DNA of 64,000 bases, from positions 159,987-223,986 of the forward strand of contig JAWPHD010003255.1 of the NCBI GenBank assembly GCA_037043455.1, given 5' to 3'. The position numbers and the translations under genes are program-made. Shown here piece after piece: positions 1,690 through 55,105 of the stretch; within the stretch, counting starts at the first letter, position 1, and every line of letters begins with the position of its first letter. Source of the DNA: Cyrtodaria siliqua (taxonomy: Eukaryota; Mollusca; Bivalvia; Adapedonta; Hiatellidae). The notes beneath the pieces were generated by a model that saw only the letters and a list, made by a program, of their open reading frames with translations, was not told the origin of the DNA and searched no databases.

Positions 1690-3821
1690 AACAAGAGGTC
1701 AATGAGCTTGAAGCTCTACTGATAGGTTTTTGACAGCTAGACCAGCATTCCTGTGAAGTTTCATGAAAATAGTTTCAGAGGAGTAGTCGCTACAAGTTTT
1801 CATTATATAACTCTATGTAAACAAAGATGGCGACTGGCGGCCATGTTAGACGTCAAATCAAAATAATTTTTGACAAGGATCAACATCATGTCATACTGAT
1901 AATTTTAGGAAAATACGCATATCAATATCACTTATAGTTTTCAAGAAGTAGTCGCTACAAACTTGTTTTTTCAAAAGCTATTTTTAGCTGTGGCGGCCAT
2001 CTTGAATTTCCGGCCGACCTGAAGTTTTGCTAAGATCAATAAGACATCAAGAGCAACATTCATGTGAAGTTTCATGAAAATCCGTAAAGTAGTTTCAGAG
2101 GAGTAGTCGCTACAAGTTTTCATTATATAACTCTATGTAAACAAAGATGGCCGCTGGCAGCCATGTTTAACGTCGAATCAAAATAATTTTCAACAAGGAT
2201 CAACATCATGTCATACTGATCATTTTAGGAAAAGACGCATATCAATATCACTTATAGTTTTCAAGAAGTAGTCTCTACCAACTTTTTTTAAAAAATATGT
2301 TTTGAGCCATGGTGGCCATTTTGAATTTCCAGCTGACCTAAATAAATTCTGGGATCAATAAGACATCAAGAGCAACATTCCTGTGAAGTTTCATAAAAAT
2401 TTGTCAAGACAGTTTCAGAGGAGTAGTCGCTACAAGTTTTTACTATATAAATCTATGTAAACAAAGATGTCCTCTAGCGGCCATGTTTAAAGGGCATCAG
2501 GATTATTCTAGAAAAATCTTAAATTATAAAAATGTTCCATTTCATGATTAAACACTTATATCAATCAAAATATGCTGTTAGAACCATGTTGTTAATGTCT
2601 AAACTTTGAATACACCATATAGCTAGGACGGAATCAGACGTAAAATGCTGAAATTAACCATGGTGCGTCACCTAGGATAGCACATATTACTGTGCTAAAT
2701 CAATTTCCTTGCAAAACAGGGATCATTTTTAGGCTCATTCATTATGTTTTGGCCATGTAGAATAGAAAATGTTAATATGTGTCAGTTTTAATTCGGACAC
2801 TTAGACCCCCATGAAAAGCCTGATGTACTCCCTTTAAAGTTGCATTGAAATAAATTAATTTCAACAAGGATCAAGATCATGTCATGCTGATCAGTTTAGA
2901 AAATGTCCCATATCAATATCACTTACGGTTTTCAAGAAGTAGTCGCTACAAATTTTAAATCTATCTTAGCCGTGGTGGCCATCTTGAATTTCCGGCCGAC
3001 CTGAAATTTTGCTAGGATCAATTAGACATCAAGAGCAACATTCCTGTGAAGTTTCATGAATATCCATAGAGTCGTTTCAGAGAAGTAGTCGCTACAAGTT
3101 TTCATTATATAATTCTATGTAAACAAAGATGGCCAATGGCAGCCATTTAATGTTGTATCAAAATAATTTTCGACAAGGATCAATATAATTCCATACTGAT
3201 CATTTTAGAATTCCCATATCACTTATAGTTTTCCAGAAGTACTCGCTACAAACATTTGTGAAAATCTATTTTTATCTGTGGTGGCCATCTTGAATTTCCG
3301 ACCAACCTGAAATGTTGCTAGGATCATTAAAACATCAAGAGCAACATTCCTGTGAAGTCTCATAGAAATCCGTTGAGTAGTTTCAGAGAAGTAGTCACTA
3401 CAAGTTTTTACTAGATAACTCTATGTAAACAAAGATGGCCGCTGGCAGCCATATTTAACGTCGAATCAAAACGATTTTCGACAAGGACCAAAACCATGTC
3501 TTGCTGATCATTTTAGTAAAAGTCCCATATCAATATCACTTAGAGTTTTCAAGAAGTAGTCGCTACAAACATGTTTTTTAAAAATCTATTTTTAGATTTG
3601 GTGGCCATATTGGATTTCACTTCAACGTGAAATTTTGCTAGGATCAACTAGACTTCATGGGCAACATTTCTGTAGTTTCATGAAAATTCATTCAGTAGTT
3701 TCAGAGGAGTAGTCGCTACAAAAAAAGTTTACGGACACACAGACAGACGGACAGACGGACGGACGACGGACACCGCACCATGGCATAAGCTCTGCTGATC
3801 TCTGATCAGTAGAGCTAAAAA
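1690..3821 (+). mobile_element. Capped family 1b element with ~310-bp type-D tandem core
   Basis: The 5' end is ACAAGAGGTCAAT, then hairpin GAGCT-TGA-AGCTC, then AGCTCTACTGAT at 1,712-1,723. The 3' end is ATCAGTAGAGCT at 3,805-3,816 followed by AAAAATAAAA, a perfect 12-bp inverted repeat about 2.1 kb apart. The 3' half also sits in a hairpin (GCTGATC-TCT-GATCAGT). The core is six to seven diverged ~310-bp monomers marked by AGTAGTCGCTACAAG (about 1,780, 2,105, 2,413, 3,085, 3,393 and 3,705), each with TATGTAAACAAAGATG. A GGACGGACGGACGACGG tract precedes the 3' end. No coding capacity. The empty site seen at 5,125-5,160 supports insertion as a unit. Type: probably a non-autonomous rolling-circle-like element, not proven. 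Confidence 0.7.
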
Positions 3822-3829
3822 TAAAAATT

Positions 3830-4132
3830 AAAACAAAACAAAAAAATATATACCGGTATATAATATATCTATTAAAAAAAAAAAAAAAAAAAAAAAATAT
3901 ACTAATAATAAAAAAAAAAGGCAAAACATATGGTAAAGTTTGGTAAAGATCAGATGAAAAATGAAAGCCCTATCATATTAACAAGGCAAAATATAGCATT
4001 CTTAAGTAAATCAAGGGCCATAACTCCGCTTTTATTGGTCAGATCTGGTCCGAACTTGTGCGAGCTTTCACTGATATTAACAATCTGGTAAAGTTTGGAA
4101 AAATGAAGGCCTTTGGCCAGTAGAGCTAAAAA
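3830..4132 (+). repeat. A-rich spacer, type-B monomers and family 1 3' cap
   Basis: A-rich/TA-rich tract, one type-B monomer plus part of a second, then GGCCTTTGGCCAGTAGAGCTAAAAAT. The same order is seen at 54,880-55,105, so this is part of a composite repeat present at least twice in the window. Confidence 0.75.
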
Positions 4133-4139
4133 TCATCAG

Positions 4140-4866
4140 CTCCAAAAAGTAGGTCAAGGTCATAGATGAAACCCAGGCATCCAAAAAAAAGGTGCACTAC
4201 CGAAGACACAACAATGTCAAAATGGAATATATTTCTTCCAAAGATTAAGCTATAAATTAGGTTTAAAACATCTAGTGCATAATTCTAGTTCATGAGAAAG
4301 TGATGTGAATGTAACAATTAAAGTTATCTACCCTTTGCTTGGATGGTGAAGGTCACATCCACATTTGCTTTGTCACGTTGCAATGTACCACTCAAGATAG
4401 AAATATAAGTAAAGTTTGTAAGATCTTAGTGCATACAGTTTATGAAAAAGTGACCTAAAAGCCAAAGTTGAAGATAAAAATTATAAGGTTATCTGCCCTT
4501 GCTTCGAGGGTCAAGGTCACTTCCACATTTGCTTTGTCACGTTGCAATGTACCACTCAAGATACAACTATAAGCAAAGTTTTAAAGGTCTAGTGCATACA
4601 GTTTGTGAAAAAGAGACCTAAACGCAAAAGTTGAACCTAACAATTATTAAGTTATCTGCCCTTCGCTTGGAGGGTCAAGGTCACTTCCACATTTGCTTTG
4701 TAACGTTGCCATGTACCATCAAAGATACAACTATAAGCAAAGTTTGAAAGGTCCACACTAGTGCATACAGTTTGTGAGAAAATGACCTAAACGCAAAACT
4801 TGAATGTTGACACGACCGCCGCCGCCGAAAAAGCAACACCTGTCTCTTTTTTGCTTCGAAAAGGCT
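4140..4866 (+). repeat. Type-E monomers (~165 bp) ending in GCC-rich family 2 terminus
   Basis: Four diverged units marked by GGTCAAGGTCACTTCCACAT, TGTACCACTCAAGATAC and GTGCATACAGTTTGTGA. They end in CCGCCGCCG, AAAAAGCAACACC and GCTTCGAAAAGGC. Equivalent arrays with the same end occur at 6,070-6,500, 9,180-9,670 and 55,290-56,645. Confidence 0.75.
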
Positions 4867-5315
4867 TTCATTCTGATCGAGACAAATATCTTGTCAATAA
4901 CGACTGTAAAAACATTCAAATCACCTGTCACCAATGGTACCATAAGTTCATACATTAAAGGTATTGTCTACTGGTGTGTTAGCTGTTTGGTTCAGTATAT
5001 TAACAACCTGGTCAAGTTTGGTAAAGATCGGATGAACAAGAAATCCGTGGATTCACATGTCTCGCCTAACGGGGGCTGGACTTAAAAATAAAAAGGTCAA
5101 TGATGCTAAAATAAAAGTTTGTAAACATTTTAGTAACTAAAAACAATCGAGTTTGCCGTTTGCTGAGATGACATTTAAGTGCATTTGTTAAAAAACAAAA
5201 TGCCATTCTATTAAAAACAAGGGGCCCAAGAGGGCCTGTCAATGCTCTACTGGCTAAAATGGCTCTTATATCAAGGGTTGTCGACATAAAATTCCCATCA
5301 GTAGTTTTTTTTTTG

Positions 5316-5352
5316 TTGTGGGGGGGAGGTGTGGGGGGGGGGGGGGGGGGGG
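5316..5352 (+). repeat. Poly-G tract
   Basis: Two G runs joined by AGGTGT, the longer about 22 bases. Length is likely unstable and the base count uncertain. Could form a G-quadruplex, but there is no promoter or other functional context. Confidence 0.85.
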
Positions 5353-5751
5353 TTATATTTACATTCTAAACAAATATGGTAAAAGATCAGATAAAAAAAT
5401 GAAGATTTAACAAAGGAAAATACAATATAGCAGTTTTCAACAAATCAAGGGCCATAACCTGTCATTACTAGCTAGATCTAGCTGGATTTCGAACCTGTCC
5501 AAAATTTCATTAATATACCATGCTTTAAAAACAACTAGACATCATACTGAGGTTTCCTGCCAAATTTTGTAGAAATCCAACAAGCCGTTTAGGAGGAGTA
5601 GCGCCGACAAGAAATTTAAATTAAAAATGTCAAAGTGCCATAACTCCGTTATAAATCAGCAAACTGGAACAAAAGCGCGAAATGCACAACTAGACATCTT
5701 ACCGATGCTTCCTGGCAAGTTTCGTCGAAATCCAACAAGGCGTTTAGGAGG

Positions 5752-5835
5752 AATCAATGAATCAATGAATAAATGGTATTTTACGGCACGTCGACACATA
5801 AATAGGTCATATTGTGCGCAAAAATTGATGATAAA
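5752..5835 (-). repeat. Second copy of the LINE 3' tail
   Basis: Shares GGTATTTTACGGCACGTCGA and CATATTGTGCGCAAAAATT with 580-645, in the same orientation. Only the last ~80 bp of the LINE are present, as expected for extreme 5' truncation. Confidence 0.7.
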
Positions 5836-5987
5836 TGAAGAAAAAAATGAAGGCCTTTGGCCAGTAGAGCTAAAAGTTTTAAATTGGGGTTCCGGGTGTC
5901 TGACCATAGTAGCGGTTTCAAACTGTCTCGTGGTAGTGACATGCCCAGTTAGTACACTAGCCACGGTTTTTTTTTTCCATTGGTGGA

Positions 5988-6087
5988 GGAAGACCCCAGG
6001 TGCCCCTCCGGGCAATTTTCGTGCATGGGTGAGCACCTGGGTAGAACCACCGACGTTCTGCAAGCCAGCTGGATAGCTTCCTCACAT
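5988..6087 (-). repeat. Internal fragment of the tRNA-Ser SINE
   Basis: GGAAGACCCCAGGTGCCCCT through GGATAGCTTCCTCACATA match the middle of the SINEs at 9,826, 14,464, 15,531 and 60,938. The tRNA-like head and the tail are both absent. Confidence 0.75.
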
Positions 6088-6510
6088 ACAGTTCGTGAAA
6101 AAGTGACCTAAACGCCAAAGTTGAAGGTAAAAATTATAATGTTATTGCCCTTGCTTGTAGGGTCAAGGTCACTTCCACATTTTGCTTTCTCACGTTGCGA
6201 TGTACCACTCAAGATACATCTATAAGCAAAGTTTTAAAGGTCTAGTGCATACAGTTTGTGAAAAAGCGACCTAAACGCAAAAGTTGAACCTAAAAATTAG
6301 TAAGTTATCTGCCCTTTGCTTGGAGGGTCAAGGTCACTTCCACATTTGCTTTGTCACGTTGCCATGTACCACCCATGATACAACTATAAGCAAAGTTTGA
6401 AAGGCCTAGTGCATACAGTTTGTGAGAAAATGACCTAAATGCAAAACTTGAATGTTGCCGCCACCGCCGGAAAAGCAACACCTATGTCTCTTGTTTTCTT
6501 CGAAAAGGCG

Positions 6511-6820
6511 TGGCGCAGTCGGTAGCACGGCGGATTTGTAACAGGAGGCCCCGGGTTCAATCCTCCGTGGTGCCACTGAGTTACGTCGGTGTGTTCTTGG
6601 GCAAGACACTTTCCCTTAGCCTCATCCGTCGGTTGGGGACGTAAACCGGGCGGTCCCGTGTATAGGTCTATCCTCCGAGCACGTTAAAGAACCATAGGAA
6701 TCTATTCGATAATAAGAGTAGGGCAGGTTCCCGGATTCCTATGTATCCTTCCCCTATCTCTGGGGCGGCTCTAAATAACCTATACTGTGTTGATGAGCCG
6801 TTAACATTCAATTCATTCAA
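6511..6820 (+). mobile_element. tRNA-derived SINE with conserved central domain, complete, with TSD
   Basis: The head carries an A-box (TGGCGCAGTCGG, 6,511-6,522) and a B-box (GGTTCAATCC, 6,554-6,563), the internal RNA polymerase III promoter elements. The central part (CTTGGGCAAGACACTTTCCC, GAGCACGTTAAAGAACC) is of the type conserved across metazoan SINEs. The tail is CATTCAATTCATTCAA. A 14-bp target-site duplication (TCTTCGAAAAGGCG) lies at 6,497-6,510 and 6,821-6,834. It inserted into the end of the family 2 element. A 5'-truncated relative is at 20,478-20,701. Confidence 0.85.
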
Positions 6821-6884
6821 TCTTCGAAAAGGCGAGACACAAATGAATGCCCTTTCATCATATATTGCAAATCAAAACCCTTAA

Positions 6885-8815: not shown

Positions 8816-8825
8816 AAGTAATCAT

Positions 8826-9670: not shown

Positions 9671-9733
9671 GGCGATATGAAAATATTGATAAAAAATGAT
9701 TTCAGTAAAATAAAAAAATATATATATAATTAT

Positions 9734-10273: not shown

Positions 10274-10279
10274 ATATAT

Positions 10280-11072: not shown

Positions 11073-12129
11073 ACAAGAGGCCCAAGAGGGCCTGTGGACG
11101 CTCTACTGGCTCTTGATAAGGTTTATGTATAAGGGGCCATAACTCTTTCAAATATTGTTCAACCAGAACATGGTGAAGATATACGCAACTTGGCTTGGTA
11201 CTGATTGTCCCTGACAAGTTTCGCTGAAATCCAGCAAGAGGTTCAGGAGAACTACTCTGTACAAAGTTAGTGTATTAAAACCTTTAAGGAGTCATAACTC
11301 TGCCAAAATTCATTCAACTAAAACACGGCAATGACAGGTGCAACTAGGCTTGGTACTGATCATCCCCATCAAGAGTCGTTGAAATGCAGCAAGGAGTTCA
11401 GAAGAGACTAATCTGGACAACGTTTGGCTATTAAAACCTTTAAAGGGCCATAAATCTGCCAAAAATCATTCAACCCGAATATGGCGATCATATGCACAAC
11501 TAGGCTTGATACTCATCATCCTTTTCAAGTTTCGTTAAAATCCAGTCAGGGATTCAGGAGAACTAGCCCGGAAAATATTTGTGTATCAAAAAGCCCGAAA
11601 AAATCTGTTAACCGGAATGCCACGATGACATGCACAACTATGCTTGCTGCTGATCATCCCTGTAAAGTTTCGTTGAAATGTGGGGAGGCGTTCAGGAGAA
11701 CTAGTCCAGACAAAGTTTGTGTATCAAAACCTTTAAAGGGCTATAACTCTGCCAAAAAATCATTCAACCGGAGCACGGCAATGATTTGCACAACTAGACC
11801 TGATACTGATCATCCTTGTCAAGTTTCGTTAAAATCCAGACAGGGGTTCAGGAGAACTAGCCCGAAAAATGTTTGTGTATCAGAAACCTTTAAAGGGCCA
11901 TAACTCCACCAAAAATCTGTTAACTGGAACGCGACGATGATATGCACAACTATGCTTGGTGCTGATCATCCCTGTAAAGTTTGGTTGAAATGTGAGGAGA
12001 CGTTCAGGAGAACTAGTCCGAAGTTTGTGTATTAAAACCTTTAAAGGGACATAACTCCGTCAAAATCATTCAACCAGAACACGGTGACGACATGTACAAC
12101 TAGGCTTGGTACTGATCATTCTTGAAAAG

Positions 12130-13610
12130 TTTCACTGAAATCGGGCCAAATGAAGGCCCTTTCTTCTTAATGAGGCCAAAATATAGCATATTTCAGAAAA
12201 TCAAAGGCCATAACTTCGGTGTAAATGGTCCAATCTGGCTGGTATTGAAATTTGTTGGAGCTTTCATTGATAGTAACAATCTGGTAAAGTTTGGTAAATA
12301 TCAGATGAAAAATGAATGCCCTATCGTATTGACGAGGCAAAATATAGCATCTTTAACTAAATCAAGGGCCATAACTCCGGTGTAAATGGTCCAATCTGGC
12401 TGGTATTGAAATTTGTTGGAACTTTCATTGATAGTAACAATCTGGTAAAGTTTGGTAAAGATCGGATGAAAAATGAAAGCCCTATCGTATTAACGAGGCA
12501 AAATATAGCATATTTTACTAAATCAAGGGCCATAACTCCGCTGTTCTGGTCTGATCTCGTTGGTTTTCAAATCTGTCCGAGCTTTTATTTATATTAACAA
12601 TCTGGTAAAGATTGGTAAAGATCGGACGAAAAACGAAGGCCCTATCGTAATATAGCATTTTTAACTAAATCAAGGGCCAGAGCTCCACTGTTGCTGGTCC
12701 GATCTGGCTGGTTTTCGAACTTGTCCAAGCTTTCATTGATATTAACAATCTGGCAATGTTTGGTAAAGATCGGATGAAAAATAAAGACCCTATCGTCTTA
12801 ACGAGGTAAACTATAGCCTTTTTAACTAAATCAAGGGCCATAACTCCGCTGTTACTGGTCTGATCTGGCTGGTGTTCGAACTTGACCGAGCTTTCATCGC
12901 CATTAACAATCTGTAAAAGTTTGGTAAAGATCGGATGAAAAATGAAGGCCCTATCTTCTTAACGAGGCAAAATATAGCATTTTGAACTAAATCAAGGGCC
13001 ATAACTCCGCTGTTACTGGTCCGATATGTATGGTTTTCTAACTTGTCCGAGCTTTCATTGATATTAACAAGTTGATAAAGTTTGGTAAAGATCGGATGAA
13101 CAATGAAGCCCCTATCGTCATAACGAGGCAAAATATAGCATTTTTAACTAAATCAAGGGCCGTAACTTCGTTGTTACTTGTCCGATATGGCTGGTTTTCG
13201 AACTTGTTCGAGCTTTCAACGACATTAACAATTTGATAAAGTTTGGTAAAGATCGGATGAACAATGAAGCCCCCATCGTCTTAACGAGGCAAAATACAGC
13301 ATTTTTAACTAAATCAAGGGCCATAACTCCGCTGCTACTAGTCCGATATGGCTGGTTTTCGAACTTGTCCGAGCTATCATTGATATTAACAATCTGATAA
13401 AGTTTGGTAAAGATTGGATGAAAAATGAAGGCCCTATCATCTTAACGAGGCAAGATATAGCATTTTTAACTAAATCAAGGGCCATAACTCTGCTGTTACT
13501 GGTCCGATCTGGCTGGTTTTCAAACTTGTCCGAGCTTTCATTGATATTAACAATCTGTTTAAGTTTGGTAAAGATCGGATGAAAAATGAAGGCCCTATTG
13601 TCTTAACGAG
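12130..13610 (+). repeat. Type-B tandem array, period ~161 bp
   Basis: Starts of GGGCCATAACTC (or variants) fall at about 12,366, 12,528, 12,674, 12,835, 12,996, 13,158, 13,318 and 13,481, giving a period of 160-162 with one 146-bp unit. Monomers carry TTGATATTAACAATCTG and GGTAAAGATCGGATGAAAAA. No frame stays open across the array. Confidence 0.9.
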
Positions 13611-13619
13611 ACAAAAGTT

Positions 13620-13685
13620 AACAGACGACGGACGACGGACGGACGACGGACGACAGACGACAGACGACGGACGACGGACAACACA
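13620..13685 (+). repeat. GACGACGGAC minisatellite
   Basis: Short purine-rich repeat of GACGACGGAC/GACAGAC just before the family 1 3' cap. The same position holds GGACAGACGGAC repeats in the elements ending at 3,821 and 54,549, so it is a regular part of the element architecture. Confidence 0.85.
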
Positions 13686-13730
13686 CCATCCCATAAGCTC
13701 TGCTGGCCGTTGGCCAGTAGAGCTAAAAAT

Positions 13731-21380: not shown

Positions 21381-21536
21381 ACATGTTCGTGAAATACTGT
21401 AGTGTCTCCTATCGCATGAATTATTACCATATAATTCAAGCCATTCTTTGATAGTTTATAGGAGGGTATGCTGTTATTGGAATCATTTTAACATTGTCAA
21501 TTGGAGCATTAATAATGTTATTCAAAACTGAGAATG

Positions 21537-21832
21537 TGTCCATGGGACACGGATGTCCTCATTAAAAACAATCAACGTAAAACAAAGAAAAAAAAAGGGC
21601 CACAATTCCAGTAATACAAGGTCGATATTGATGCAGAATATACAGGCACATCTTGAAATCATAGGTAAGCATCCTGTAAAGTTTTGAAACAATCAGTTCA
21701 GAAGTGTGGGAGGAGGAGGTGAGAAGTGTGGGAGGAGATAGTCACACAACCTTTTCGGGATGGACACTCGTACATACGTCTGGATGACCGGACGGCCTCA
21801 CTTCCCTCACCATTCAGTGATGGGGGCATAAA
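21537..21832 (+). mobile_element. Capped family 4 element in field II
   Basis: 5' end GTGTCCATGGGACACGGATG, a self-complementary hairpin, and 3' end GATGGGGGCATAAAAA. The IR word has drifted here. Flanks read ATGTTATTCAAAACT and TTATTCAAGTCTAGC, an interrupted module X, so its site differs from the family 4 copies in field III. Confidence 0.6.
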
Positions 21833-22997
21833 AATTATTCAAGTCTAGCAACAACACAAAATATATCGTTAGACAGATAACTAAAGAAAACACAGCTTTT
21901 TTAATAGAACAGACAATTATGCTTTTTTTAAAAGACTGACATGGGTGTTTGGTTCTGCATATCGACCTGATGAGATCAGTAAAATTGTGCCAAGTTATTT
22001 TCAAATCACTCCGCAGTGTTGTAAATCGGGCACAAAATGGCCCGGCCTTACTATAGGTATATAAGAAGTGAATGACCTTTAAAGTGAACTTGACTGTAAA
22101 TATATTGACATGAATGCTGGGTTCTGCACATAGTCTTGATGAAATGAGTAAATGATACAAGTTATTTTCAAATCACTCCATGCAGGCAAGTCATACAGGC
22201 AAGTGTTGTAAATCAGACACAAAATGACCCGGCCTTCCTATAGGCATATAAAAAAAAGAATGGCATTCAGAGTGACATTGGCTTTAAAGATAATTACATG
22301 AGTGTTTGGTTCTGCACATTGCCTTCATCAGAGCAGTAAATATGCCAAAATATTTTTACATCCGTCTATGCATACTAGAGTAATGAAGAGGACAAGAAAT
22401 GGGCCTTACTATAGGCATATCAGAAGTGAAGAGACTTAAATGACCTTGACATTGAAGATACGGACATGGGTGTCAAATTCTACACATTGTCTTGATGATA
22501 TTAATAAATGTGTCTAGTTATTTTGCAATTCCTCCATGCATGTAAGAGTTATTAAGTGGTCAAGAAATGGACCTTACTATAGGCATAAAAGAAGTGAATG
22601 GCCTTCAGAGTGACCTTGAATTTGAAGATACTGACATGAGTGTTGTGTCTGCACATTGTCTGGATGAGATGAGTAAATGTGCAAAAATTATTTCAAAATC
22701 CCTCAATGCGTGCAAGAGTTATTAAGTAGACATGATATGCACCTTACTATAGACAAATTATAAGAAGTGAATACTTTTAGGGTGATTTTGTCTTTGAAGA
22801 ATATGGGGATGGATTTAGCACACTGTCTTGATGAGATAAGGAAATCTGCCATATTTTTTTGAAATCCCTCAATATATGCCAGCATTATGAAGAGGAGACA
22901 AAATCCGAAGTGAATGGCCTTCAGAGTGACCCTGACCTTGAAGATACCGACATGGGTGTTGGACTCTGCAGTCTTGATGATATGATGAATCCCTCCA

Positions 22998-30898: not shown

Positions 30899-30899
30899 C

Positions 30900-31229: not shown

Positions 31230-31718
31230 AACAAGAGGCACTGCCTGTCAGTACAGATGCTCGACTTTCAAGGCCTTGTCTATTTATTGGGATATTAAGT
31301 TAAAGTGCATACTTCTGCTTAATTGCAAGACAGAATTATTGCGCTCATCTCTATGAGTTCTGACAGTGAGCACATATGTGATGTTTTACTGAATTCTTTT
31401 AGGGGGATTCCGAGACATGATGAAAACATTTTTTTTTAAAAAGACTATTATAAAGTTGACAAGCTTAAATACAAAACGTGAACCAATTTTCCAATTTTTT
31501 CTAAGTATAAAAGGGGCAATAATTTGTTATGGAATCTGGTTTGATGTCTAGAAAGATTTATAAGGAAGCCCAGAACCAGATTTGGTTGAGCTAGGACAAG
31601 GAATGTAAGAGGTGAAACTATAAACACAGTCTACATGCACAAGCTTCAGGTACAAAGGGACGCCAATGCCGCAGCCATTACATAAGCTCTCTTATTCCTC
31701 GAACAGTCAAGCTAAAGA
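31230..31718 (+). mobile_element. Capped family 3 element, short form (~490 bp)
   Basis: 5' cap AACAAG, hairpin AGGC-ACT-GCCT, then GCTCGACT at 31,259-31,266. 3' end AGTCAAGC at 31,705-31,712 (seven of eight paired), followed by TAAAG. The 3' region carries GGGACGCCAATGCCGCAGCC and ACATAAGCTCTCTTATTCCTC, also found at 48,330-48,375. Confidence 0.65.
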
Positions 31719-32157: not shown

Positions 32158-32467
32158 TAGAAGTGTGTCCATAGGACATGGATGCCCCTGATACTTCTTC
32201 ACATATTAATAAGAAATTACCTTTCTGAAATTGTTTTCGTGATTTTTTTACTATTACAAGGGGCATAACTCTGGAATTACTGAGGCGATGGGGCTGATTA
32301 GAAAGCCTGGCTGGGACATTGTGCCTATATACAGTTTGACAAGGTTCAGAGAAAATTGGATAACAATTACCCAAGTTAGAGTCTGGACAACATTTCTGAC
32401 ACAAACGCTCGGACAGGTGTAACACTATATGCCCTTCCACCATTCTTCGAATGGCAGGGGCATAAAA
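32158..32467 (+). mobile_element. Capped family 4 element, copy 1 in field III
   Basis: Cap CTAGAAG, hairpin TGTCC-ATA-GGACA, then GGATGCCCCTGA. The end is CCATTC-TTC-GAATGG hairpin, then AGGGGCATAAAAAG. More diverged from the later copies than they are from each other. Confidence 0.75.
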
Positions 32468-33484
32468 AGTCATGCTTTTATTAGAATCATGTTTGCATTT
32501 TCAATTGAAGCAATATTAATGTTATTCAAAACCTTTAGTCACGTCTAACAACAACACAAATCAATATTGCTAGACAGATATGTACTATACTAACTCATGA
32601 AAAACAGATTTCTTCTTGTATTTATAAGAAGTTATACTTCTATTGAAATCATTTTAACACTTGTTAAAAAATACCAGATGAAATGTTCTCTAAATTATTT
32701 GTTCTGTCTTGCAACAATGGAAAAACACATTTCCTAGACTGAACTTACAATAATGTTTTTATAGCAAAACAGCAATTTGTGTAGATTGTTTGGCAACAAT
32801 TCACTAGATCTGTTAGACCCGAGTCACAGGTTTGTGGAATACTACAGTCTGACATCACGTGAATTGTTACTATAATTGGAGCCATGTCTTTTTAATTGAT
32901 AGAATATGAATGTTATTCAAAACCTTTTTTTCAAATCTAGCAACAACACACATGAATATTGCTAGACAGAACTTACAACATAACTGAAGACAATGCAGCA
33001 TTTTTTACAATTTATAAGAAGATATGCTGATATTAGAATCATTTTAACATTCAACATATTTAAGTCTACCAACAACACAAATAAATATTACTATAAATAC
33101 TAGAATTATTTTTACACTGTCAACTGTTGCACTATGAATGCAATTTGACATCTCTAGTCAAGCCTAACAACAACACAAATAAATATTACTTAACAGCATT
33201 TACAATATTGACTGAAGAAAACTGCTTTTTTTTCATAATTAACTAGTGTCAATTAATGCTATATGAATGTTGTCTAAATTGTTTGTTCTAGTCTTGCAAC
33301 AATGGAAATATACAATTCTAGGACTGAACTTACAATAACATCGTTATGGCAAAATAGTAGCATTTCTGTAAATTATTTGGTAATAACTCAGTAGATCTGT
33401 AAGATCAGAGTCACAGGTTCGCGGAATACTGCAGCATCTGACATGGCATGAATTATTACCTATAATCTGATTCATTGTTTATAA

Positions 33485-33797
33485 CTAGAAGTGTGTCCAT
33501 AGGACATGGATGCCCCTGATAGCGCTTCACATATTAATAAGAAATTACCTTTCTGAAATTGTTTTCGTGATTTTTTTACTATTACAAGGGGCATAACTCT
33601 GGAATTACTGAGGCGATGGGGCTGATTATAAAACCTTGTTGATACATGGTGCCCATATAAAATTTGACAAGGTTTAGAGAAAATTGGATAACAATTACCC
33701 AAGTTAGAGAATGGACAACCTTTTCAACACAAACACTCAGACAGGGGTAACACTATATGCCCTTCCACCATTCTTCGAATGGCAGGGGCATAAAAAG
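33485..33797 (+). mobile_element. Capped family 4 element, copy 2
   Basis: Hairpin TGTCC-ATA-GGACA at 33,494-33,506, IR word ATGCCCCT at 33,510-33,517, matching AGGGGCAT at 33,784-33,791, then AAAAAG. Flanks TTTATAA and AAGTTATGC are one module X sequence (compare TTTATAAGAAGTTATGC elsewhere). The 76-codon minus-strand frame is conserved only because the copies are amplified together. Confidence 0.8.
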
Positions 33798-36255: not shown

Positions 36256-36566
36256 CTAGAAGTGAGTCCATAGGACATGAATGCCCCTGATAGTGATTCA
36301 CATATTAATAAGAAATTACCATTGCGAAATTGTTATCGTGATTTTTTTACTATTCCAAGGGGCATAACTCTGGAATTACTGAGGCGATGGGGCTGATTAT
36401 AAAACCCGGCTGAGACATGGTGCCCATAGACAATTTGACAAGGTTTAGAGAAAATTGGATAACAATTATCCAAGTTATAGTCTGGACCCCTTTTTCAACA
36501 CAAATGCTCGGACAGGGGAAACACTATATGCCCTTCCACCATTCTTCGAATGGCAGGGGCATAAAA
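36256..36566 (+). mobile_element. Capped family 4 element, copy 3
   Basis: As copy 2, same flanks, with GAGTCCATAGGACATGAATG at the cap; the first G weakens the cap hairpin by one pair. One per 2.77-kb higher-order unit. Confidence 0.8.
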
Positions 36567-39025: not shown

Positions 39026-39336
39026 ATAGAAGTGAGTCCATAGGACATGGATGCCCCTGATAGTGCTTCACATATTAATAAGAAATTGCCATTGTGAAAT
39101 TGTTATCGTGATTTTTTTACTATTCCAAGGGGCATAACTCTGGAATTACTGAGGCGATGGGGCTGATTATAAAACCTGGCTGAGACATGGTGCCCATAGA
39201 CAATTTGACAAGGTTTGGAGAAAATTGGATAACAATTACCCAAGTTATAGTCTGGACACCTTTTTCAACACAAACGCTCGGACAGGGAAAACACTATATG
39301 CCCTTCCACCATTCTTCGAATGGCAGGGGCATAAAA
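39026..39336 (+). mobile_element. Capped family 4 element, copy 4
   Basis: Same element, but the left flank has lost about 17 bp (TCTGATAGAAG in place of TCTGATTCATTGTTTATAACTAGAAG). 2,770 bp from copy 3. Confidence 0.8.
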
Positions 39337-41119
39337 AGTTATGCTTTTATTAGAATCATTTTAACATTTTCAATTGATGCAATATTAATGTTACTCAAAA
39401 CCTTTAGTCAAGTCTAACAACAACACAAATCAATATTGCTAGACAGATATGTACTATACTAACTCATGAAAAACAGATTTCTTCTTGTATTTATAAGAAG
39501 TTATACTTCTACTGAAATCATTTTAACATTTGTTAAAAAATGCCAGATGAAATGTTCTCTGAATTATTTGTTCTGTCTTGCAACAATGGAAATACATATT
39601 TCCTAGACTGAACTTACAATAAGGTCTTATGTACAAAACTGCAATTTGAGTAGATTGTTTGGCAACAATTCATTAGATCTGTAAGACCTAAGTCACAGGT
39701 TTGCGGAATACTGCAGTCTGACATCACGTGAATTGTTACTATAATTGGAGCCATGTCTTTTTAATTGATAGAATATGAATGTTATTCAAAACCTTTATTC
39801 AAATCTAGCAACAACACACATGGATATTGCTAGACAGAACTTACAACATAACTGAAGAAAATGCACATTTTTTACAATTTATAAGAAGATATGCTGATAT
39901 TAGAATTATTTTAACATTGTCAATTGATGCAGTATGAATGCAATTCAACATATTTAAGTGTATCAACAACACAAATAAATATTACTAGACACTAAACAGT
40001 ATTTGTTTGAATTGATAAAATTATACTATTATTAGAATTATTTTAACATTGTCAATTGTTGCGATATGAATCGCAATTGCAATTTCACATCTCGATTCAA
40101 GGCTAACAACAACACAAATAAATATTACTTGACAGAACCTACAAAACAGCATTTTGTTTTCATTTTATATAAAAATTAATGTCATTATTGGAATCATTTT
40201 AACATGTGTCACCAATAAGTGATATATGAGTGTAGTCTAAATTATTTGTTCTAGTCTTGCAACAATGGAAATACATATTTCCTTAGACTGAACTTACAAT
40301 AAGGTCTTATGTACAAAACTGCAATTTGTGTAGATTGTTTAGTAACAATTCACTAGATCTGTAAGACCTGAGTCACAGGTTTGCAGAATACTGCAGCGTC
40401 TGACATCGCATGAATTATTACCATATAATTTGTCCATTTTTTTATTTGATAACATATGAATGTTATTCAAAACCTTTATTCAAATATAGCAACAACACAT
40501 ATAAATATTGCTAGACAGAATGTACAACATTATAAAGAAAATTTAGTTTTTTTTCAATTGATAATAAGTTTGCTATTATTAGCATCATTTTAATATTTTC
40601 ATTCGTTGCATGCAATAAGAATGCAATTCAACATATTTAAGTCTAGCAACAACACAAATAAATATTACTAGAAATAACTATTACTAGACATAAAACATCA
40701 TTTGTTTGTAGTTATAAGAAGTTATGCTATTATTGGAATTATTTTAACACTGTCAACTGTTGCAATATGAATGCAAGTCGACATCTCTAGTCAAGCCTAG
40801 CAACAACACAAATAAATATTACTGGACAGCATTTACAATATTGACTGAAGAAAACTGCTTTTTTTTTCAATATTAACATGTGTCAATTAATGCTATATGA
40901 ATGTTGTCTAAATTGTTTGTTCTAGTCTTGCAACAATGAAAATATACAATTCCAGGATTGAACTTACAATAACATCATTATAGCAAAATAGCAGCAATTT
41001 CTGTAACTTATTTGGTAATAATTCAGTAGCTCTGTTAGATCCGAGTCACAGGTTCGCGGAATACTGCAGCATCTAACATGGCATGAATTATTACCTATAA
41101 TCTGATTCATTGTTTATAA

Positions 41120-41431
41120 CTAGAAGTGAGTCCATAGGACATGGATGCCCCTGATAGTGCTTCACATATTAATAAGAAATTACCTTTCTGAAATTGTTTT
41201 CGTGATTTTTTTACTATTCCAAGGGGCATAACTCCGGAATTACTGAGGCGATGGGGCTGATTATAAAACCCGGCTGAGACATGGTGCCCATAGACAATTT
41301 GACAAGGTTTAGAGAAAATTGGATAACAATTACCCAAGTTATAGTCTGGACACCTTTTTCAACACAAACGCTCGGACAGGGAAAACACTATATGCCCTTC
41401 CACCATTCTTCGAATGGCAGGGGCATAAAAA
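41120..41431 (+). mobile_element. Capped family 4 element, copy 5
   Basis: Full element with intact flanks, about 2,094 bp from copy 4, matching a higher-order unit that lost one module. Confidence 0.8.
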
Positions 41432-42679
41432 GTTATGCTTTTATTAGAATCATTTTAACATTTTCAATTGATGCACTATTAATGTTATTCAAAACCTTTA
41501 GTCAAGTCTAACAACAACACAAATCAATATTGCTAGACAGATATGTACTATACTAACTCATGAAAAACAGATTTCTTCTTGTATTTATAAGAAGTTATAC
41601 TTCTACTGAAATCATTTTAACATTTGTTAAAAAATGCCAGATGAAATGTTCTCTGAAGTATTTGTTCTGTCTTGCAACAATGGAAATACATATTTCCTAG
41701 ACTGAACTTACAATAATGTTTTTATAGCAAAACAGCAATTTGTATAGACTGTTTGGCAACAATTCACTAGATCTGTAAGACCCAAGTCACAGGTTTGCGG
41801 AATACTGCAGTCTGACATCACGTGAATTGTTACTATAATTGGAGCAATGTCTTTTTAATTGATAGAATATGAATGTTATTCAAAACCTTTATTCAAATCT
41901 AGCAACAACATATATGAATATTGCTAGACAGAACTTACAACATAACTGAAGAAAATGCAGCATTTTTTACAAATTATAAGAAAATATGCTGATATTAGAA
42001 TCATTTTAACATTGTCAATTGATGCAGTATGAATGCAATTCAACATATTTAAGTCTATCAACAACACAAATAAATATTACTAGACACTAAACAGTATTTC
42101 TTTGAATTAATCAAAAATTAAGCTATTATTACAATTATTTTAACATTGTCAATTGTTGCGATATGAATCGCAATTGCAATTTAACATCTCGATTCAAGGC
42201 TAACAACAACACAAATAAATATTACTTGACAGAATTTACAATATTGACCTACGAAAACAGCATTTTGTTTTCATTTTATATAAATATTAATGCCATTATT
42301 GGAATCATTTTAACATGTGTCAATAAATGTTATATATGAGTGTAGTATAAATTATTTGTTCTAGTCTTGCAACAATGGTAATACATATTTTCTAGACTGA
42401 ACTTACAATAAGGTCTTATGAACAAAACTGCAATTTGTGTCGATTGTTTAGTAACAATTCACTAGATCTATAAGACCTGAGTCACAGGTTTGCCTAATAC
42501 TGCAACGTCTGACATCGCGTGAATTATTACCATATATATATAATTTGTCCATTTTTTGATTTGATTGAATATGAATGTTATTCAAAACCTTTATTCAAAT
42601 ATAGCAACAACACATATAAATATTGCTAGACAGAATGTACAATATTATAAAGAAAACATAGCTTCTTTTTTTTTCAATT

Positions 42680-42835
42680 TATAAGAAGTTTGCTATTATT
42701 AGCATCATTTTAATAATGTATAAGAAGCTTGCTATTATTAGCATCATTTTAATAATTTATAAGAAGCTCGCTATTATTAGCATCATTTTAATAATTTATA
42801 AGAAGCTTGCTATTATTAGCATGATTTAAATATTG
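42680..42835 (+). repeat. Local 39-bp tandem expansion, four copies
   Basis: TAAGAAG followed by TTGCTATTATTAGCATCATT repeats with starts at about 42,682, 42,721, 42,760 and 42,799. Other modules carry this unit once (e.g. 38,480-38,520), so it is a local slippage or unequal-exchange event. Confidence 0.9.
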
Positions 42836-43340
42836 TCATTCGCTGCATGCAATAAGAATGCAACTCAACATATTTAAGTCTAGAAACAACACAAATAAAC
42901 ATTACTAGAAATAACTATTACTAGACATAAAACATCATTTGTTTGTAGTTATAAGAAGTTATGCTATTATTGGAATTATTTTAACACTGTCAACTGGTGC
43001 AATATGAATGCAATTCGACATCTATAGTCAAGCCTAGCAACAACACAAATAAATATTACGGGACAGCATTTACAAAAACCGCTTTTTTTTCCATTATTAA
43101 CATGTGTCAATTAATGCTAAACGAATGTTGTCTAAATTTGTTCTAGTCTTGCAACAATGGAAATATACAATTCCAGGACTAACCTTACAATAATATCGTT
43201 ATAGCAAAATAGCAGCAATTTCTGTAAATTATTCGGTAACAACTCAGCAGATCTGTAAGACCCGAGTCACAGGTTCGTGGAATACTGCAGTATCTGACAT
43301 GGCATGAATTATTACCTATAATCTGATTTATTGTTTATAA

Positions 43341-43481
43341 CTAGAAGGTTGACAAGGTTTAGAGAAAATTGGATAACAATTACCCAAGTTATAGTCTGGA
43401 CAACATTTTTGACACAAACGCTCGGACAGGTTTAACACTATATGCCCTTCCACCATTCTTCGAATGGCAGGGGCATAAAAA
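43341..43481 (+). mobile_element. Capped family 4 element, copy 6, internal deletion
   Basis: CTAGAAG joins directly to GTTGACAAGGTTTAGAGAAA, so the 5' hairpin and most of the body are gone. The 3' hairpin and AGGGGCATAAAAAG remain. Confidence 0.75.
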
Positions 43482-46032: not shown

Positions 46033-46197
46033 AACAAAAGCATGACCCCAAATGGGGCCTGTATCAATCCACTGGTTTAAGGCTGTATAGTGTCCAAAAG
46101 GTTCTAATGATAAACATTTGACACATTTGATGGAAAACATAAGCTCGTCTGGCTGAATCGCCTGGCCTTCGACCATAAGAGATTGAGCTAATAAATA
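46033..46197 (+). mobile_element. Capped family 5 element, minimal form (~165 bp)
   Basis: AACAAAAG, hairpin CCCC-AAAT-GGGG (46,046-46,057), CCTG, then TCAATC at 46,064-46,069. The 3' end is GATTGA at 46,181-46,186 followed by GCTAATAAA. The IR word is only six bases, so this family depends on the shared layout for support. Confidence 0.45.
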
Positions 46198-48662: not shown

Positions 48663-48679
48663 CTGTGGTAAATAAAGAT

Positions 48680-49308: not shown

Positions 49309-49323
49309 TTCCAAAGGGCAATA

Positions 49324-50514: not shown

Positions 50515-51961
50515 TTCCAAAGGGCAATAACTCTACCAGTATTCTGAATTAAGATAAGAGTTACAGTTCTATTGCACTCTGCACTTCCTCTCATTACCTT
50601 CTATCATTGTGTGGCCTTTAATTGTAGTCCCCATAAGTAGTTTTGAAGTTATGCTCCAGACAAAAATTCTAAGTAAACAAGAGGCCCAAGAGGGCCTGCA
50701 GACGCTTTACTTGTATGAAGTGCTTCAAAAACATAAACATGATAGAGGCCAACCCAAGAAACATGTTTCCTATATATAACTCTTATGTAAACTTTGGGTT
50801 ATCGTGGCGGCCATTTTGAATATTTGACGACAACGAAAAACACAAACTTGATAGAGGCCAACAACAGGAACATGCATATGATATTTAACTAGAATGGAAT
50901 AAGTGGTAATATGTCGTTTGATAAATGTCCTTAAATTTGACCTAAGTTTAGCCATGGTGGCCATCATGGATGACTGGAGGCCCCAAATATGAGGGGGAGT
51001 CACTAACCCAAAGATCATTGTGATTAAGTTTCATCAAAATCCTTCAAGCACTTTCAGAAAAGAGTCATTTTTAACGTTTTCCTATATAACTCTATGTAAA
51101 CTTTGGGTCACTGTGGCGGCCATTTTGATTATTCGACGATAACAAAAAACACAAACTTGATAGAGGCTAACCCAAGGAACATGTTTATGATATTTCACAA
51201 GAATGGAATAAGTGGTTTTGGAGGAGATGTCATTTGAATTTCCTTAAATTTAACCTTAATTGTTTTAGACATGACGGCCATCTTGGATGACTTGCAGACA
51301 CAAAAAACACAAAACTGAGAGGGACTATCCCAAAGATCATTGTGATTTAAGTTTCATCAAAATCATTCAAGCACTTTCAGAGAAGAGTCATTTTTAACGT
51401 TTTTCTATATAACTCTATGTAAACTTTGGGTCACTGTGGCGGCCAGTTTGATTATTCAACGATAACAAAAAACACAAACTTGATAGAGGCTAACCAAAGG
51501 AACATGTTTATGATTTTTCACAAGAATGGAATAAGTGGTTTTGGAGGAGATGTCATTTAAATTTCCTTAAATTTAACCTTGTTTTAGACATGACGGCCAT
51601 CTTGGATGACTTGCAGACACAAAAAACACAAATCTGAGAGGGACTATCCCAAATATCATTGTGCTTAAGTTTCATCAAAATCTTTCAGGCAGTTTCATGC
51701 AGATAAGATGTAATTTTTAACCTTTTCCTATATAACTCTATGTAAACTTTGGGTCGCCGTGGTGGCCATTTTTATTATTTGACGATAACGACAAACATAA
51801 ACTTGATAGAGGCCAACCCAAGGAACATGTACATATGATATTTCCGTAGAACGGAATAAGTGGTTTCGGAGGAGATGTCGTTTGAAATTTCCTTAAATTT
51901 GACCTTATTTTAGCCATGGCGGCTATCTTGGATGACTGGCGGCCGCGAAAAACACAAATCT

Positions 51962-54374
51962 GGATTTGGACCACCATTATTTTCACATAGACCGTAATGT
52001 TAGCTCTACACAGAATAACACTTACCCTAATGCTCCGTGACACTTCAAATATCCATTAAAATGTATATACGTGATGACAAAACACAAAAATAGCAAAACA
52101 ACAATGACCATAACTGCTCTATGCACCAGCATTTGGCTCAAAATGAAACAAGATGACCTTTTTTGACAACAACAGCCGAACCACACCTCATTTTGTTGAA
52201 AATCTTACCTCATACAAGTTAGTACCACTCAGCACTCTGATGACTGATTCCTTTGCTTTTTGCACCCATATCTTCGGAAATCTATCCTCAAAACAAAAAC
52301 AGTAAATATACGTACCTCTTTTATGTACTAAATCAATTACACAGTCCCAAATAACACCACTGATCGTACTACCTTCGAGTACGACCATTTTCAACTTTTG
52401 ACCTCTCTGGTTACCGGTCCAAGTCCTATATGCCCTAGATTTGGTTTTAAAACAATTTATAATTACATGTGAGTATCAACTTACATGTCAACTTGAAAAA
52501 TCCAGAATACCATCGCCATTCATCGAAGACTGGGGAAGATATTGGTGTTCGAGTCTAGGCGCCTTCACTGCGACAACCTGTATGAACAAACTACCCGCAG
52601 TGGTGACAAGGGGTATACTGAAAATATCATAAAAAAATAATTAGTAATAATTTGGAGCCAAACTGATTTCTTATAGTCAGTAATAGTATTGGTGCTAAAC
52701 ATAAATACACATTTACACATTGCGATATGAAATTTCTAACTGAACAGCATGTTATTTGTAGACGCAGGCCCTCGTGGGTTTATTTTATATCATTTTTGAA
52801 ATTTCAATTATTATATTTTAAAAAATAAAAATCTAAAACTGTCAAAACTTAGCCTGTTGGAATCTTACAAGTATATATTAGACACAAATGACACAACATA
52901 TTCAAAATCACCAATGCTTTATTTCCTATTTCCATTTTTGGGTCATTTTGACCAAATCCGAGAAGATTCCAATATTTTCAAAGTTTAATAATATGTGTGT
53001 ACAGATTCACATATTCATGAAACCTGGCAGAAAGGTTTCACACATATCATATATTCAGAAAAAAATTATAACTGCCTTCTCACTATGGAATAAGAGAACC
53101 CATAGCCATTACAGCCGTCTCGGGATGTAATTTGTTCATGTTTTTGACCAAGTTTCTCAATTAATATAGTTTCCTTTGCACTATATAGAATTATATCAAA
53201 AGAATAAAGTAATTTCTAAAATTTCCTATAGAGCAACAGACTTACTGATCCAATAATTTCTCAAATCTTTCACTTTTGGCTTTATAAAAACATTTAACTT
53301 GAATCCCTATGTGACTAGAAAAATGGTAGTTTTTCCGAGGCTCAACCAATGTGAGCCCAACACGGTTTATTTGGTTTATACATCAGCGTATACCCAAATA
53401 TGCAATTTACTTATAATTTACACCAGCACACCTATCTGGATCATTTTAACCATAACACTCAAAGCTTGCATTTTTAAAGAAAAGAGAAATTATCAGGACA
53501 TTGACATTGAATAATGTGTTTACATGGCTCATCCAGAGCAATCTGATTGCCGTTAAAATATTTGCTTATAAAATTATAAAATTATAATGATTATTTGTTG
53601 TCGACCATTCTGGATAATACCAGGTGTGGATTTACCTCTTAAGGTCTGAAATCAGAGGAAAAAGACCCGATGCAGGGTAACAAATACCGTCATTTAATTT
53701 TTCTTGCCGGGGAGGTGGGGGAGGGTTCGAGTAAGTAAACATTTTAGATAAATACAATATGTCTGGTTGGTCAAGTAAATAAATACAGGTAGATAAAGAT
53801 GTATTCATTGCTTGTATGAGATATGAGGAGTGAGTTCTTGGTGATACTGTTTAGGTAGGAGTTCTCAAGTATATAGTTTGAATCTCATCACATACAAAAA
53901 TCTAGTATGCAAACATGTTGTGACTGCCCATACATGTATGTAGAGAAATGTGTGACGATCCGAGAAGACCAACAGAACCAACCATATGCATTTGTGCGAT
54001 AGCGCAAACCAACAGAAATCCATGTATTTAGATTGTATAGATCTCGGTTAACAAAACACTCAAAATTACCTAATATGTGTAATAAACGAAAGAATAAACA
54101 ATGACATGGATCTGAAAAAAATGCCTATTATTTGCAGAAAATGCTTCATGACTCGGACCGATGCAAAACAGCTTTCCAAGCCTCAGAAAACATACAATTT
54201 TCACATATCATGCATATGTGCATTTATTTCATAAAGATATACAATGCTAATGATGAAATATACATTTGTGAACACAAATATCAACTCATACCTGCATTAC
54301 TGGAACACTGATGGTACTACTTTCGCGTACGACCATTTTCAACTTTTGACCTCCCTGGTTACCGGTCCAAGTCC
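51962..54374 (-). mobile_element. 2.41-kb TIR element of unknown superfamily, 4-bp TSD
   Basis: A type-C monomer stops at CACAAATCT and resumes with ATCTGAGAGGGGCCC, giving duplication ATCT at 51,958-51,961 and 54,375-54,378. The insert begins GGATTTGGACC and ends GGTCCAAGTCC, 11-bp inverted termini with one mismatch. The last ~65 bp of the right end are repeated internally at about 52,362-52,426, also ending GGTCCAAGTCC. A minus-strand frame of about 94 codons starts in this internal copy (see 52,188-52,469). The rest (52,640-54,290) is AT-rich without recognisable domains. Could be a DNA transposon with a decayed or intron-containing gene, or two related elements side by side. Confidence 0.55.
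52188..52469 (-). CDS. Unrecognised ~94-codon minus-strand frame within the TIR element
   Basis: Open from about 52,469 to 52,188. It includes RTWTGNQRGQKLKMVVLEGS, a GVIWDCVIDLVHKR segment and DRFPKIWVQKAKESVIRVLS. The first internal methionine start is at 52,394. The composition is protein-like and basic, with no domain I can name. The N-terminal part is repeated at 54,375-54,290 with several substitutions that leave much of the peptide similar (GQKLKMVV, STIS shared) before a donor-like GTATGAGTT. This hints at real coding history in the mobile element. It may be a transposase remnant or chance. No ATG context or upstream exon is certain. Confidence 0.3.
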   Translation of the reverse strand, partial: HVIINCFKTKSRAYRTWTGNQRGQKLKMVVLEGSTISGVIWDCVIDLVHKRGTYIYCFCFEDRFPKIWVQKAKESVIRVLSGTNLYEVRFSTK

Positions 54375-54544
54375 ATCTGAGAGGGGCCCTCCCAAGTAAC
54401 ATTGTGATGAAGTTTCATCCAAATCCTTCAAGCGCTTTCAGAGGAGATGTCGATTTCATAAAATTGCTAACAGATGGACAGACAGACAGACGGACGACTG
54501 ACGAAAAGTGATCGCATAAGCCCTCCTGGCCTTTGGCCAGTAGA

Positions 54545-55105
54545 GCTAAAAATCAACAAACCGGAAAAAAATGCGACAGGCACAACTAGAAATTATAGCA
54601 ATGCTTCCTGCTAATACGGCGTTAACACTAAAAAAACTTGAAAAAAGTAATAAAAAAAAATAATGAAATAAAAAAAATGAAGATATTAAAAAAGAATAAT
54701 AATAAATAAAAAAATAATTGAAACAACCAATCAATCAAATAAAAAAGAATTAAAAAAAAGATAAAAAATTAATCAAAAAAATAATTTAAACCAAAAAAAA
54801 ATCTAAAAAAAAATATATGTATAACGTTATTAAAAAAAAAATTAAAGAAAAAAAATATACTAATAATAAAAAAAAAGGCAAAACATCTGGTAAAGTTTGG
54901 GTCAGATGGAAAATGAAAGCCCTATCGCATTAACGAGACAAAATATAGCATTTTTAACTAAAGCAAGGGCCATAACTCGGCTGTTACTGGTCCGATCTGG
55001 CTGGTTTTCGAACTTGTGAGAGCTTTCATTGATATTAACAATCTATTGAAGTTTGGTAAGGATCACATGAAAAATGAAGGACCTTGGCCAGTAGAGCTAA
55101 AAATC
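54545..55105 (+). repeat. Composite repeat: type-F end, A-rich spacer, type-B, family 1 end
   Basis: Same order as 130-570 and 3,830-4,132: AAAATCAACAAACCGG, CGGCGTTAACAC, long A-rich/AATAA tract (54,630-54,860), type-B monomers, then TTGGCCAGTAGAGCTAAAAATC. Confidence 0.75.

What the first reader, a model, noticed from the sequence alone, without database searches (positions are those of the whole stretch)
1690..54549. Six or more repeat families share one structural end-grammar with covarying inverted words
Different families have different sequences but the same layout: AACAAG-like start, a short perfect hairpin, a family-specific word W, a tandem or short core, then usually a second hairpin, reverse-complement W and TAAAA. 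Examples: family 1 (11,073-13,730) hairpin AGGCCC/GGGCCT, W GCTCTACTGGC. Family 1b (1,690-3,821) hairpin GAGCT/AGCTC, W AGCTCTACTGAT. Family 2 (5,035-6,845) hairpin AATCC/GGATT, W GTCTCGCCT. Family 3 (31,230-31,718) hairpin AGGC/GCCT, W GCTCGACT. Family 4 (33,485-33,797) hairpin TGTCC/GGACA, W ATGCCCCT. Family 5 (46,033-46,197) hairpin CCCC/GGGG, W TCAATC. Families 1 and 1b differ by GGC versus GAT at the 5' word and GCC versus ATC at the 3' word, a compensatory change. Pairing rather than sequence seems to be kept, suggesting that end-to-end pairing matters for mobilisation. Non-autonomous Helentron/HINE elements are known to have subterminal inverted repeats, a 3' hairpin and satellite cores; the 5' hairpin and the covariation across families are what I have not seen described.
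Basis: partly seen in the sequence, partly recalled or inferred. Interest (0 to 1): 0.88.

Follow-up and report, generated by a model that had tools for sequence, protein, structure and literature searches.

The report
Known rolling-circle transposon ends, read backwards

Summary
The shared end layout is real, but it is the published Helitron2/HINE layout read on the wrong strand.

W/W' matching is family-specific: 5 of 362,880 permutations reach the observed match over nine elements. Six are strong (1, 1b, 2, 4, a new 1c, an autonomous element); families 3, 5 and a 21.5-kb element are at background. Exact 3'-cap matches genome-wide: 17,059 (family 1) and 35,226 (1b), backward controls 0. An autonomous Rep element has the same grammar with another word; 19 of 23 of its 3' caps lie 2.9-21 kb downstream of a Rep hit. 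The window families' own partner was not found.

Both-end hairpins, compensatory changes and end-to-end pairing are in Bao & Jurka 2013; the bivalve HINE version in Vojvoda Zeljko 2020. New members of a known kind.

The parts
11073..11093 (-). Family 1, true 3' terminus: CTTGT end (rc of ACAAG) and palindrome AGGCCC-AAGA-GGGCCT
   Evidence: 17,059 exact genome matches of the cap pattern, control 0
11100..11110 (-).
11130..13616 (-). Family 1 central tandem repeats (units of 156-161 bp in three adjoining arrays)
13621..13680 (-). Family 1 microsatellite (GTC-rich on the true strand) between array and 5' end
13696..13724 (-). Family 1, true 5' terminus: inverted copy AGCTCTGCTGGCC, loop GTT, 5' subterminal repeat GGCCAGTAGAGCT (as read on +), followed by AAAA
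10765..10802 (-). Another family 1 3' cap upstream of the 11,073 element
1691..1723 (-). Family 1b 3' cap: mutated palindrome AGGTCAATGAGCTT (genome consensus AGGTCAATGACCTT) and subterminal repeat AGCTCTACTGAT (1712-1723)
3788..3816 (-). Family 1b 5' end: AGCTCTGCTGATC-TCT-GATCAGTAGAGCT
5036..5067 (-). Family 2 3' cap: ACAAG, AATCC-GT-GGATT, W GTCTCGCCT
1587..1618 (-). Second, identical family 2 3' cap
6486..6838 (-). Family 2 5' end: inverted copy GTCTC... (from 6486) and W' AGGCGAGAC (6830-6838), split by an insert between two copies of CTTCGAAAAGGCG
5217..5872 (-). Family 1 copy lying between the two family 2 caps; its 5' end lacks the inverted arm and keeps only GGCC-TTT-GGCC before AGTAGAGC
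31231..31717 (-). Family 3, looks like a decayed relative of family 1c (W GCTCGACT / AGTCaAGCT); own W/W' score at background
33487..33795 (-). Family 4 element; W ATGCCCCTG (33510-33518), W' CAGGGGCAT (33783-33791), palindrome TGTCC-ATA-GGACA (33494-33506)
21530..21833 (-). Family 4-like element (palindrome GTGTCC-ATG-GGACAC); W/W' at background
46034..46195 (-).
50677..54551 (-). Family 1 caps, probably one element, around 323-bp repeats; its 3' subterminal repeat has diverged

Best explanation
The repeats are non-autonomous rolling-circle transposons of the Helitron2/Helentron type (HINEs), inserted at T^T, with their true 5'-to-3' direction on the minus strand of the window. Inferred mechanism: a Rep/helicase from autonomous elements nicks at the 5' end and displaces a single strand. 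At the 5' end the subterminal repeat pairs locally with its inverted copy. When the 3' end is reached, its subterminal repeat can pair with the 5' one instead, open the 5' hairpin and, with the 3' palindrome, mark where to stop. Each family keeps its own word because both ends must match, so words change together when a new family is founded. Shown here: layout, boundaries, copy number, between-family co-variation, an autonomous element with the same grammar. Inferred: which enzyme moves which family, and the pairing switch (the model of Bao & Jurka).
For: Own-family W/W' matching is reached by 5 of 362,880 permutations of nine elements; in four subsets of four less related elements the true pairing is the best of 24. 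All 24 non-nested L/R cap pairs of the AGCTC group under 5 kb carry corresponding words, one of them (GAAT/GATC) one base off. Boundaries fit T^T, empty-site reading in L021. Cap matches 17,059 and 35,226, controls 0. Autonomous element: PF14214 and DUF6570; 5' end T^TATTAGTGCCCGCC-ATGA-GGCGGGCACT in two copies; 3' end GCGGGCACT + TTGATGC/GCATCAA + CTTGTT; 19 of 23 such caps on the same strand downstream of Rep hits. DNA folding, true strand: end-to-end duplex stronger than the local 5' hairpin in four of five families and level in the fifth.
Against: No autonomous element with the window families' own words was found. Families 3, 5 and the 21.5-kb element do not pass the matching test. Within families palindrome changes are mostly uncompensated. 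2 of 18 family-1 pairs lack the inverted arm, so a full 5' hairpin may be dispensable. In two-strand folding the autonomous element keeps its local hairpin on both strands, and family 1 does on the complement strand. Two of 29 copies have 10-11-bp flanking repeats, unusual for this kind.
Confidence: 0.92

Rival explanations
1. They are MITEs of a cut-and-paste transposon with imperfect terminal inverted repeats.
For: Inverted repeats near both ends; bivalve 'pearl' elements were called MITEs in an earlier paper (PMC5139131, passages).
Against: The repeats are asymmetric (one terminal, one inside a palindrome); flanking duplications seen in 2 of 29 only; an autonomous Rep element in the genome has the same kind of ends.
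Confidence: 0.03
2. The caps are incidental features of satellite or segmental repeats that spread by unequal exchange, not by transposition.
For: Family 4 caps recur locally; three 1b 3' caps stand 120 bp apart at C2:1,156,719-1,156,959.
Against: Sharp boundaries with differing flanks on different contigs; tens of thousands of matches, nearly equal on both strands.
Confidence: 0.02
3. Canonical Helitron1 elements.
For: Rep proteins with PF14214 are present; 671 first-look candidates, 150 scored.
Against: No TC...CTRR ends (rule stated); hairpins at both ends; T^T rather than A^T insertion (A^T is recalled).
Confidence: 0.02

Closest known systems
Helitron2 (Bao & Jurka 2013, PMC3627910; passages seen)
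   Same: Asymmetric terminal inverted repeats of 8-15 bp; 5' repeat in a 5' hairpin; 3' repeat immediately before a 3' hairpin; compensatory changes between two related elements; insertion after T-runs; proposed end-to-end pairing that destroys the 5' hairpin.
   Different: Other species and words; here several families and an autonomous element in one genome, with whole-genome counts of two cap types.
Cg_HINE elements of Crassostrea gigas (Vojvoda Zeljko 2020, PMC7492417; abstract, sections 7-9 and part 1 of section 10 read)
   Same: 5' subTIR + complementary IR, GTCC/GTCY microsatellite, tandem repeats of 140-180 bp, 3' subTIR, palindrome, TT target, several unrelated families with one layout, element-specific changes in subTIR, IR and stems.
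   Different: Other genome; no sequence comparison with Cg_HINE was made here. That paper could not relate Cg_HINE to autonomous elements; here an autonomous element with the same grammar, but another word, was found.
DINE-1/HINE and EN-encoding Helentrons (Thomas 2014, PMC4067079; passages seen)
   Same: subTIRs, IR, 3' stem loop, microsatellite, central repeats, TT insertion; families defined by at least 11 bp of identical subTIR.
   Different: Autonomous Helentrons there carry an endonuclease; 1 of 91 relatives of the autonomous protein here lists PF14529/PF03372, and its own C-terminal part was not read.

Membership tests
Helitron2 / HINE | Asymmetric subterminal inverted repeats, family-specific | tested here: met
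   Families 1, 1b, 1c, 2, 4 and the autonomous element; not above background in 3, 5 and the 21.5-kb element
Helitron2 / HINE | 3' palindrome next to the 3' repeat | tested here: met
   Nine caps with 5-8-bp perfect stems, 1b taken as genome consensus; single 5-bp stems are not significant alone
Helitron2 / HINE | 5' repeat folds with an inverted copy downstream | tested here: met
   Families 1, 1b, 1c, 4 and the autonomous element; arm missing in 2 of 18 family-1 pairs; family 2 arm is separated by an insert; not tested well for 3 and 5
Helitron2 / HINE | Insertion at TT without target duplication | tested here: met
   A/A at 28 and 29 of 29 boundaries; 2 of 29 with 10-11-bp flanking repeats
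Helitron2 / HINE | Autonomous Rep/helicase partner with the same ends | tested here: inconclusive
   Autonomous element with the same grammar but a different word; none with the words of families 1-5 found
EN-encoding Helentron | Endonuclease domain in the autonomous partner | tested here: inconclusive
   Absent from the 1,161 aa scanned, last part of the frame not fetched; 1 of 91 relatives has EN domains
Helitron1 | 5'-TC ... CTRR-3' ends, single 3' hairpin | tested here: not met
   True-strand ends T^TAGCTC.../...CTTGT^T, hairpins at both ends
MITE of a DDE transposon | Constant target site duplication | tested here: not met
   27 of 29 without one by the test used

The most novel reading that the evidence does not exclude
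The inverted copy beside the 5' repeat is tuned so that the local hairpin never beats the end-to-end duplex (true strand: family 1 -11.5 vs -15.7; 1b -9.2 vs -14.2; 1c -4.2 vs -19.8; 4 -10.4 vs -13.0; autonomous -14.3 vs -14.5 kcal/mol). The 5' hairpin would be a metastable stop switch that the arriving 3' end can open, and three sites (5' repeat, inverted copy, 3' repeat) must change together to found a new family. Against it: the autonomous element has a perfect inverted copy and only ties, and copies without the arm exist. Odds lowered from 0.2 to 0.15 on rechecking the two-strand folds.
Probability: 0.15. Interest if true: 0.6.

Novelty: new member of a known kind. Interest (0 to 1): 0.3.

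Why it matters
It settles what the repeats most likely are and which way they run, shows that two cap types alone give over 52,000 exact matches in one 2.88-Gb genome, and points to a genome with many nearly identical autonomous copies sharing the same end grammar, a good place to test the 2013 end-pairing model.

Tried and rejected
Looked for related DNA in bacterial and viral collections: genome contigs gave 2 hits (Streptomyces, a gammaproteobacterial MAG), taken as chance and dropped; viral contigs 0 for four patterns. A generic grammar scan of the window gave 17 raw hits on + (collapsing to a few family 1/1b elements, one unrelated) and 2 on -, against 0-6 in 20 Markov controls and 1 and 1 in the reversed window; it did not recover families 2-5. 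Rfam and tRNA scans: nothing. Hairpins after a T-run within 1.5 kb of 30 Rep hits: none; upstream of other autonomous groups (L061, L062, L065-L068): none convincing. A first pattern for the autonomous 3' end was mistyped and gave 0 (corrected). Planned counts of caps without the inverted arm, of intact family-1 5' ends, of chimeric caps, and a survey of 5'-end hairpin variants did not complete.

Full report
What was claimed. Six repeat families share a layout: AACAAG, hairpin, word W, core, second hairpin, reverse-complement W, TAAAA.

What is there. The window lies in an unnamed 2.88-Gb genome of 26,948 contigs, at C3255:159,987-223,986. I take it for a bivalve by its 160-bp repeats and end words (recalled likeness; the only named mollusc among the relatives of the autonomous protein is an Ostrea edulis protein, 64% identical over half the query).

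Orientation. Read as the reverse complement, family 1 is: T-run, AGCTCTACTGGCC, loop, GGCCAGCAGAGCT, GTC-rich microsatellite, 156-161-bp tandem repeats, GCCAGTAGAGC, palindrome AGGCCCTCTTGGGCCT, CTTGT. That is the order printed for Cg_HINE elements: 5' subTIR, complementary IR, GTCC/GTCY microsatellite, tandem repeats, 3' subTIR, palindrome, TT target (PMC7492417).

Boundaries. Twenty of the 41 listed family-1 matches were fetched with flanks. In 29 copies bounded by L and R caps in the window and these loci (27 distinct right ends) the base before ACAAG is A in 28 and the base after GAGCTA is A in 29; these A's may be element or target. In L021 the element sits in a 160-bp unit, and the flanks read on without gain or loss as the uninterrupted repeat GGATGA|AAAATGAAGG, the exact point within the A-run being open. 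This fits insertion at T^T on the true strand. Two of 29 (L020, L030) have 10- and 11-bp flanking direct repeats.

Do W and W' belong together? For nine elements (1, 1b, 1c from L023, 2, 3, 4, a 21.5-kb relative, 5, and the autonomous element) every left end was scored against every right end. The own-pair sum is 82; 5 of 362,880 permutations reach it; in four subsets of four less related elements the true pairing is the best of 24. Own scores, in that order: 11, 12, 15, 10, 5, 9, 5, 6, 9. So six are convincing and three (3, the 21.5-kb element, 5) are not. In the AGCTC group, 35 L caps gave 24 non-nested pairs under 5 kb, all with corresponding words (18 GGC, 5 GAT-type of which one is a base off, 1 ATTC). 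These copies are related and stand for three families.

The palindromes. Family 1b in the genome reads ACAAGAGGTCAATGACCTTGAAGCTCTACTGAT (70 of 98 rows printed with letters, counted by eye; 35,226 exact pattern matches, control 0). Family 1 has 17,059 matches; a few places are counted twice by the variable gap. Between families the palindromes differ and still pair: AGGCCC/GGGCCT, AGGTC/GACCT, GCTGT/ACAGC, AATCC/GGATT, AGGCA/TGCCT, TGTCC/GGACA, CCCCA/TGGGG, AGGGCCAT/ATGGCCCT in L028, TTGATGC/GCATCAA in the autonomous element. But a 5-bp stem after ACAAG is common by chance (17 of 162; control words 2-13%), so weight rests on the set, not on one stem. Within families, the deviating copies entered show 48 one-sided changes (37 breaking the pair, 11 wobble), 2 two-sided changes to a standard pair and 3 to none: no sign that pairing is kept after insertion.

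Autonomous element. PF14214 gives 671 first-look candidates, 150 scored, with open frames up to 3,385 aa. One group (1,774-aa frame; two copies 99.9% identical over 2.8 kb) starts T^TATTAGTGCCCGCC-ATGA-GGCGGGCACT at a sharp boundary in both. A 3' cap AGCGGGCACT-TGATGC-TTT-GCATCAA-ATTTTTCTTGTT follows in the C310 copy. The core of that cap occurs 23 times in the genome, control 0; 19 of 23 lie on the same strand downstream of a Rep hit: 11 at 13.2-15.3 kb, 6 at 2.9-6.5 kb, 2 at 19.7-21.3 kb; for 4 caps no Rep hit was seen on the contig. With the 5' boundary of the C360 copy this gives about 18 kb for the full element (inferred). C310 departs from four other copies inside the 3' part and looks shortened. 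The part of the frame read has DUF6570 and Helitron_like_N; of 91 relatives most list Rep and PIF1-type helicase domains and one lists endonuclease domains. This fits Helitron2 better than endonuclease-bearing Helentrons, but the end of the frame was not read. Its words score at background with the window families, so the partner of families 1-5 is not identified.

Mechanism. Bao & Jurka proposed that pairing of the two end repeats destroys the 5' hairpin and sets the endpoint, and noted compensatory changes in two related elements. DNA folding here fits in part: on the true strand the end-to-end duplex is stronger than the local 5' hairpin in families 1, 1b, 1c and 4 and level in the autonomous element. 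When both ends are folded together the duplex wins in those four, but the autonomous element keeps its local hairpin on both strands, and family 1 does on the complement strand. The cost of closing a kilobase loop is ignored. Against a strict need for the hairpin, 2 of 18 family-1 pairs (L013 and window 5,217) lack the inverted arm; at 4,115 and 5,859 only GGCC/GGCC is left, and at 55,086 that is further altered to GGACC.

Literature. Searches returned the key papers; those did not. What I saw of each paper is stated in Closest known systems. In the passages seen I met no statement on the strength of the 5' hairpin relative to the end-to-end duplex, which is no claim that none exists.

Verdict. 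Real, well supported and ordinary in kind: new families of a described layout, with a correction of strand, of the 1b hairpin and of the standing of families 3 and 5.

Noticed in passing
G000:C310, C360, C2284 and others: A young autonomous Helitron2-like element of about 18 kb (inferred) with a 1,774-aa Rep frame in many near-identical copies; C310 is rearranged or shortened in its 3' part, and short Rep-to-cap spacings suggest the same for C4505, C5576, C7157, C11258 and C14084 (not read).
   Followed up: partly
window 6498-6834: A SINE-looking insert (tRNA-like by eye; ARAGORN reports no tRNA) lies in the family 2 5' end between two copies of CTTCGAAAAGGCG, which occurs once at the uninterrupted end at 9,662; part of it recurs at 20,476.
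   Followed up: partly
window 32,165-43,481: Family 4 caps recur at 1.3-2.8-kb spacing with similar surroundings, so they look duplicated with their neighbourhood rather than inserted one by one.
   Followed up: partly
L020:301, L030:301: Two family 1 copies have 10-11-bp flanking direct repeats (AAAACACTAA, GGGTAGATCTA), like the rare duplications reported for a Chlamydomonas Helitron2.
   Followed up: no
G000:C2:1,156,719 / 1,156,839 / 1,156,959: Three family 1b 3' caps at exact 120-bp spacing: a small tandem array of transposon ends.
   Followed up: no
L023 (- strand) 3716-5675; L028:1710 and 1763: Further families with the same grammar: 1c (W AGCTCGACTATTC, 15-bp perfect end match) and a cap ACAAGAGGGCCATGATGGCCCTATATCGCTCACC.
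   Followed up: partly
window 4115, 5859, 55086: Family 1 5' ends in which the inverted arm is replaced by the end of a 160-bp repeat; 4115 and 55086 share their outer flank.
   Followed up: partly
window, whole: The caps found have one orientation apart from two weak or isolated matches, perhaps because insertions nest in A-rich tracts of one strand and some copies were duplicated together.
   Followed up: no
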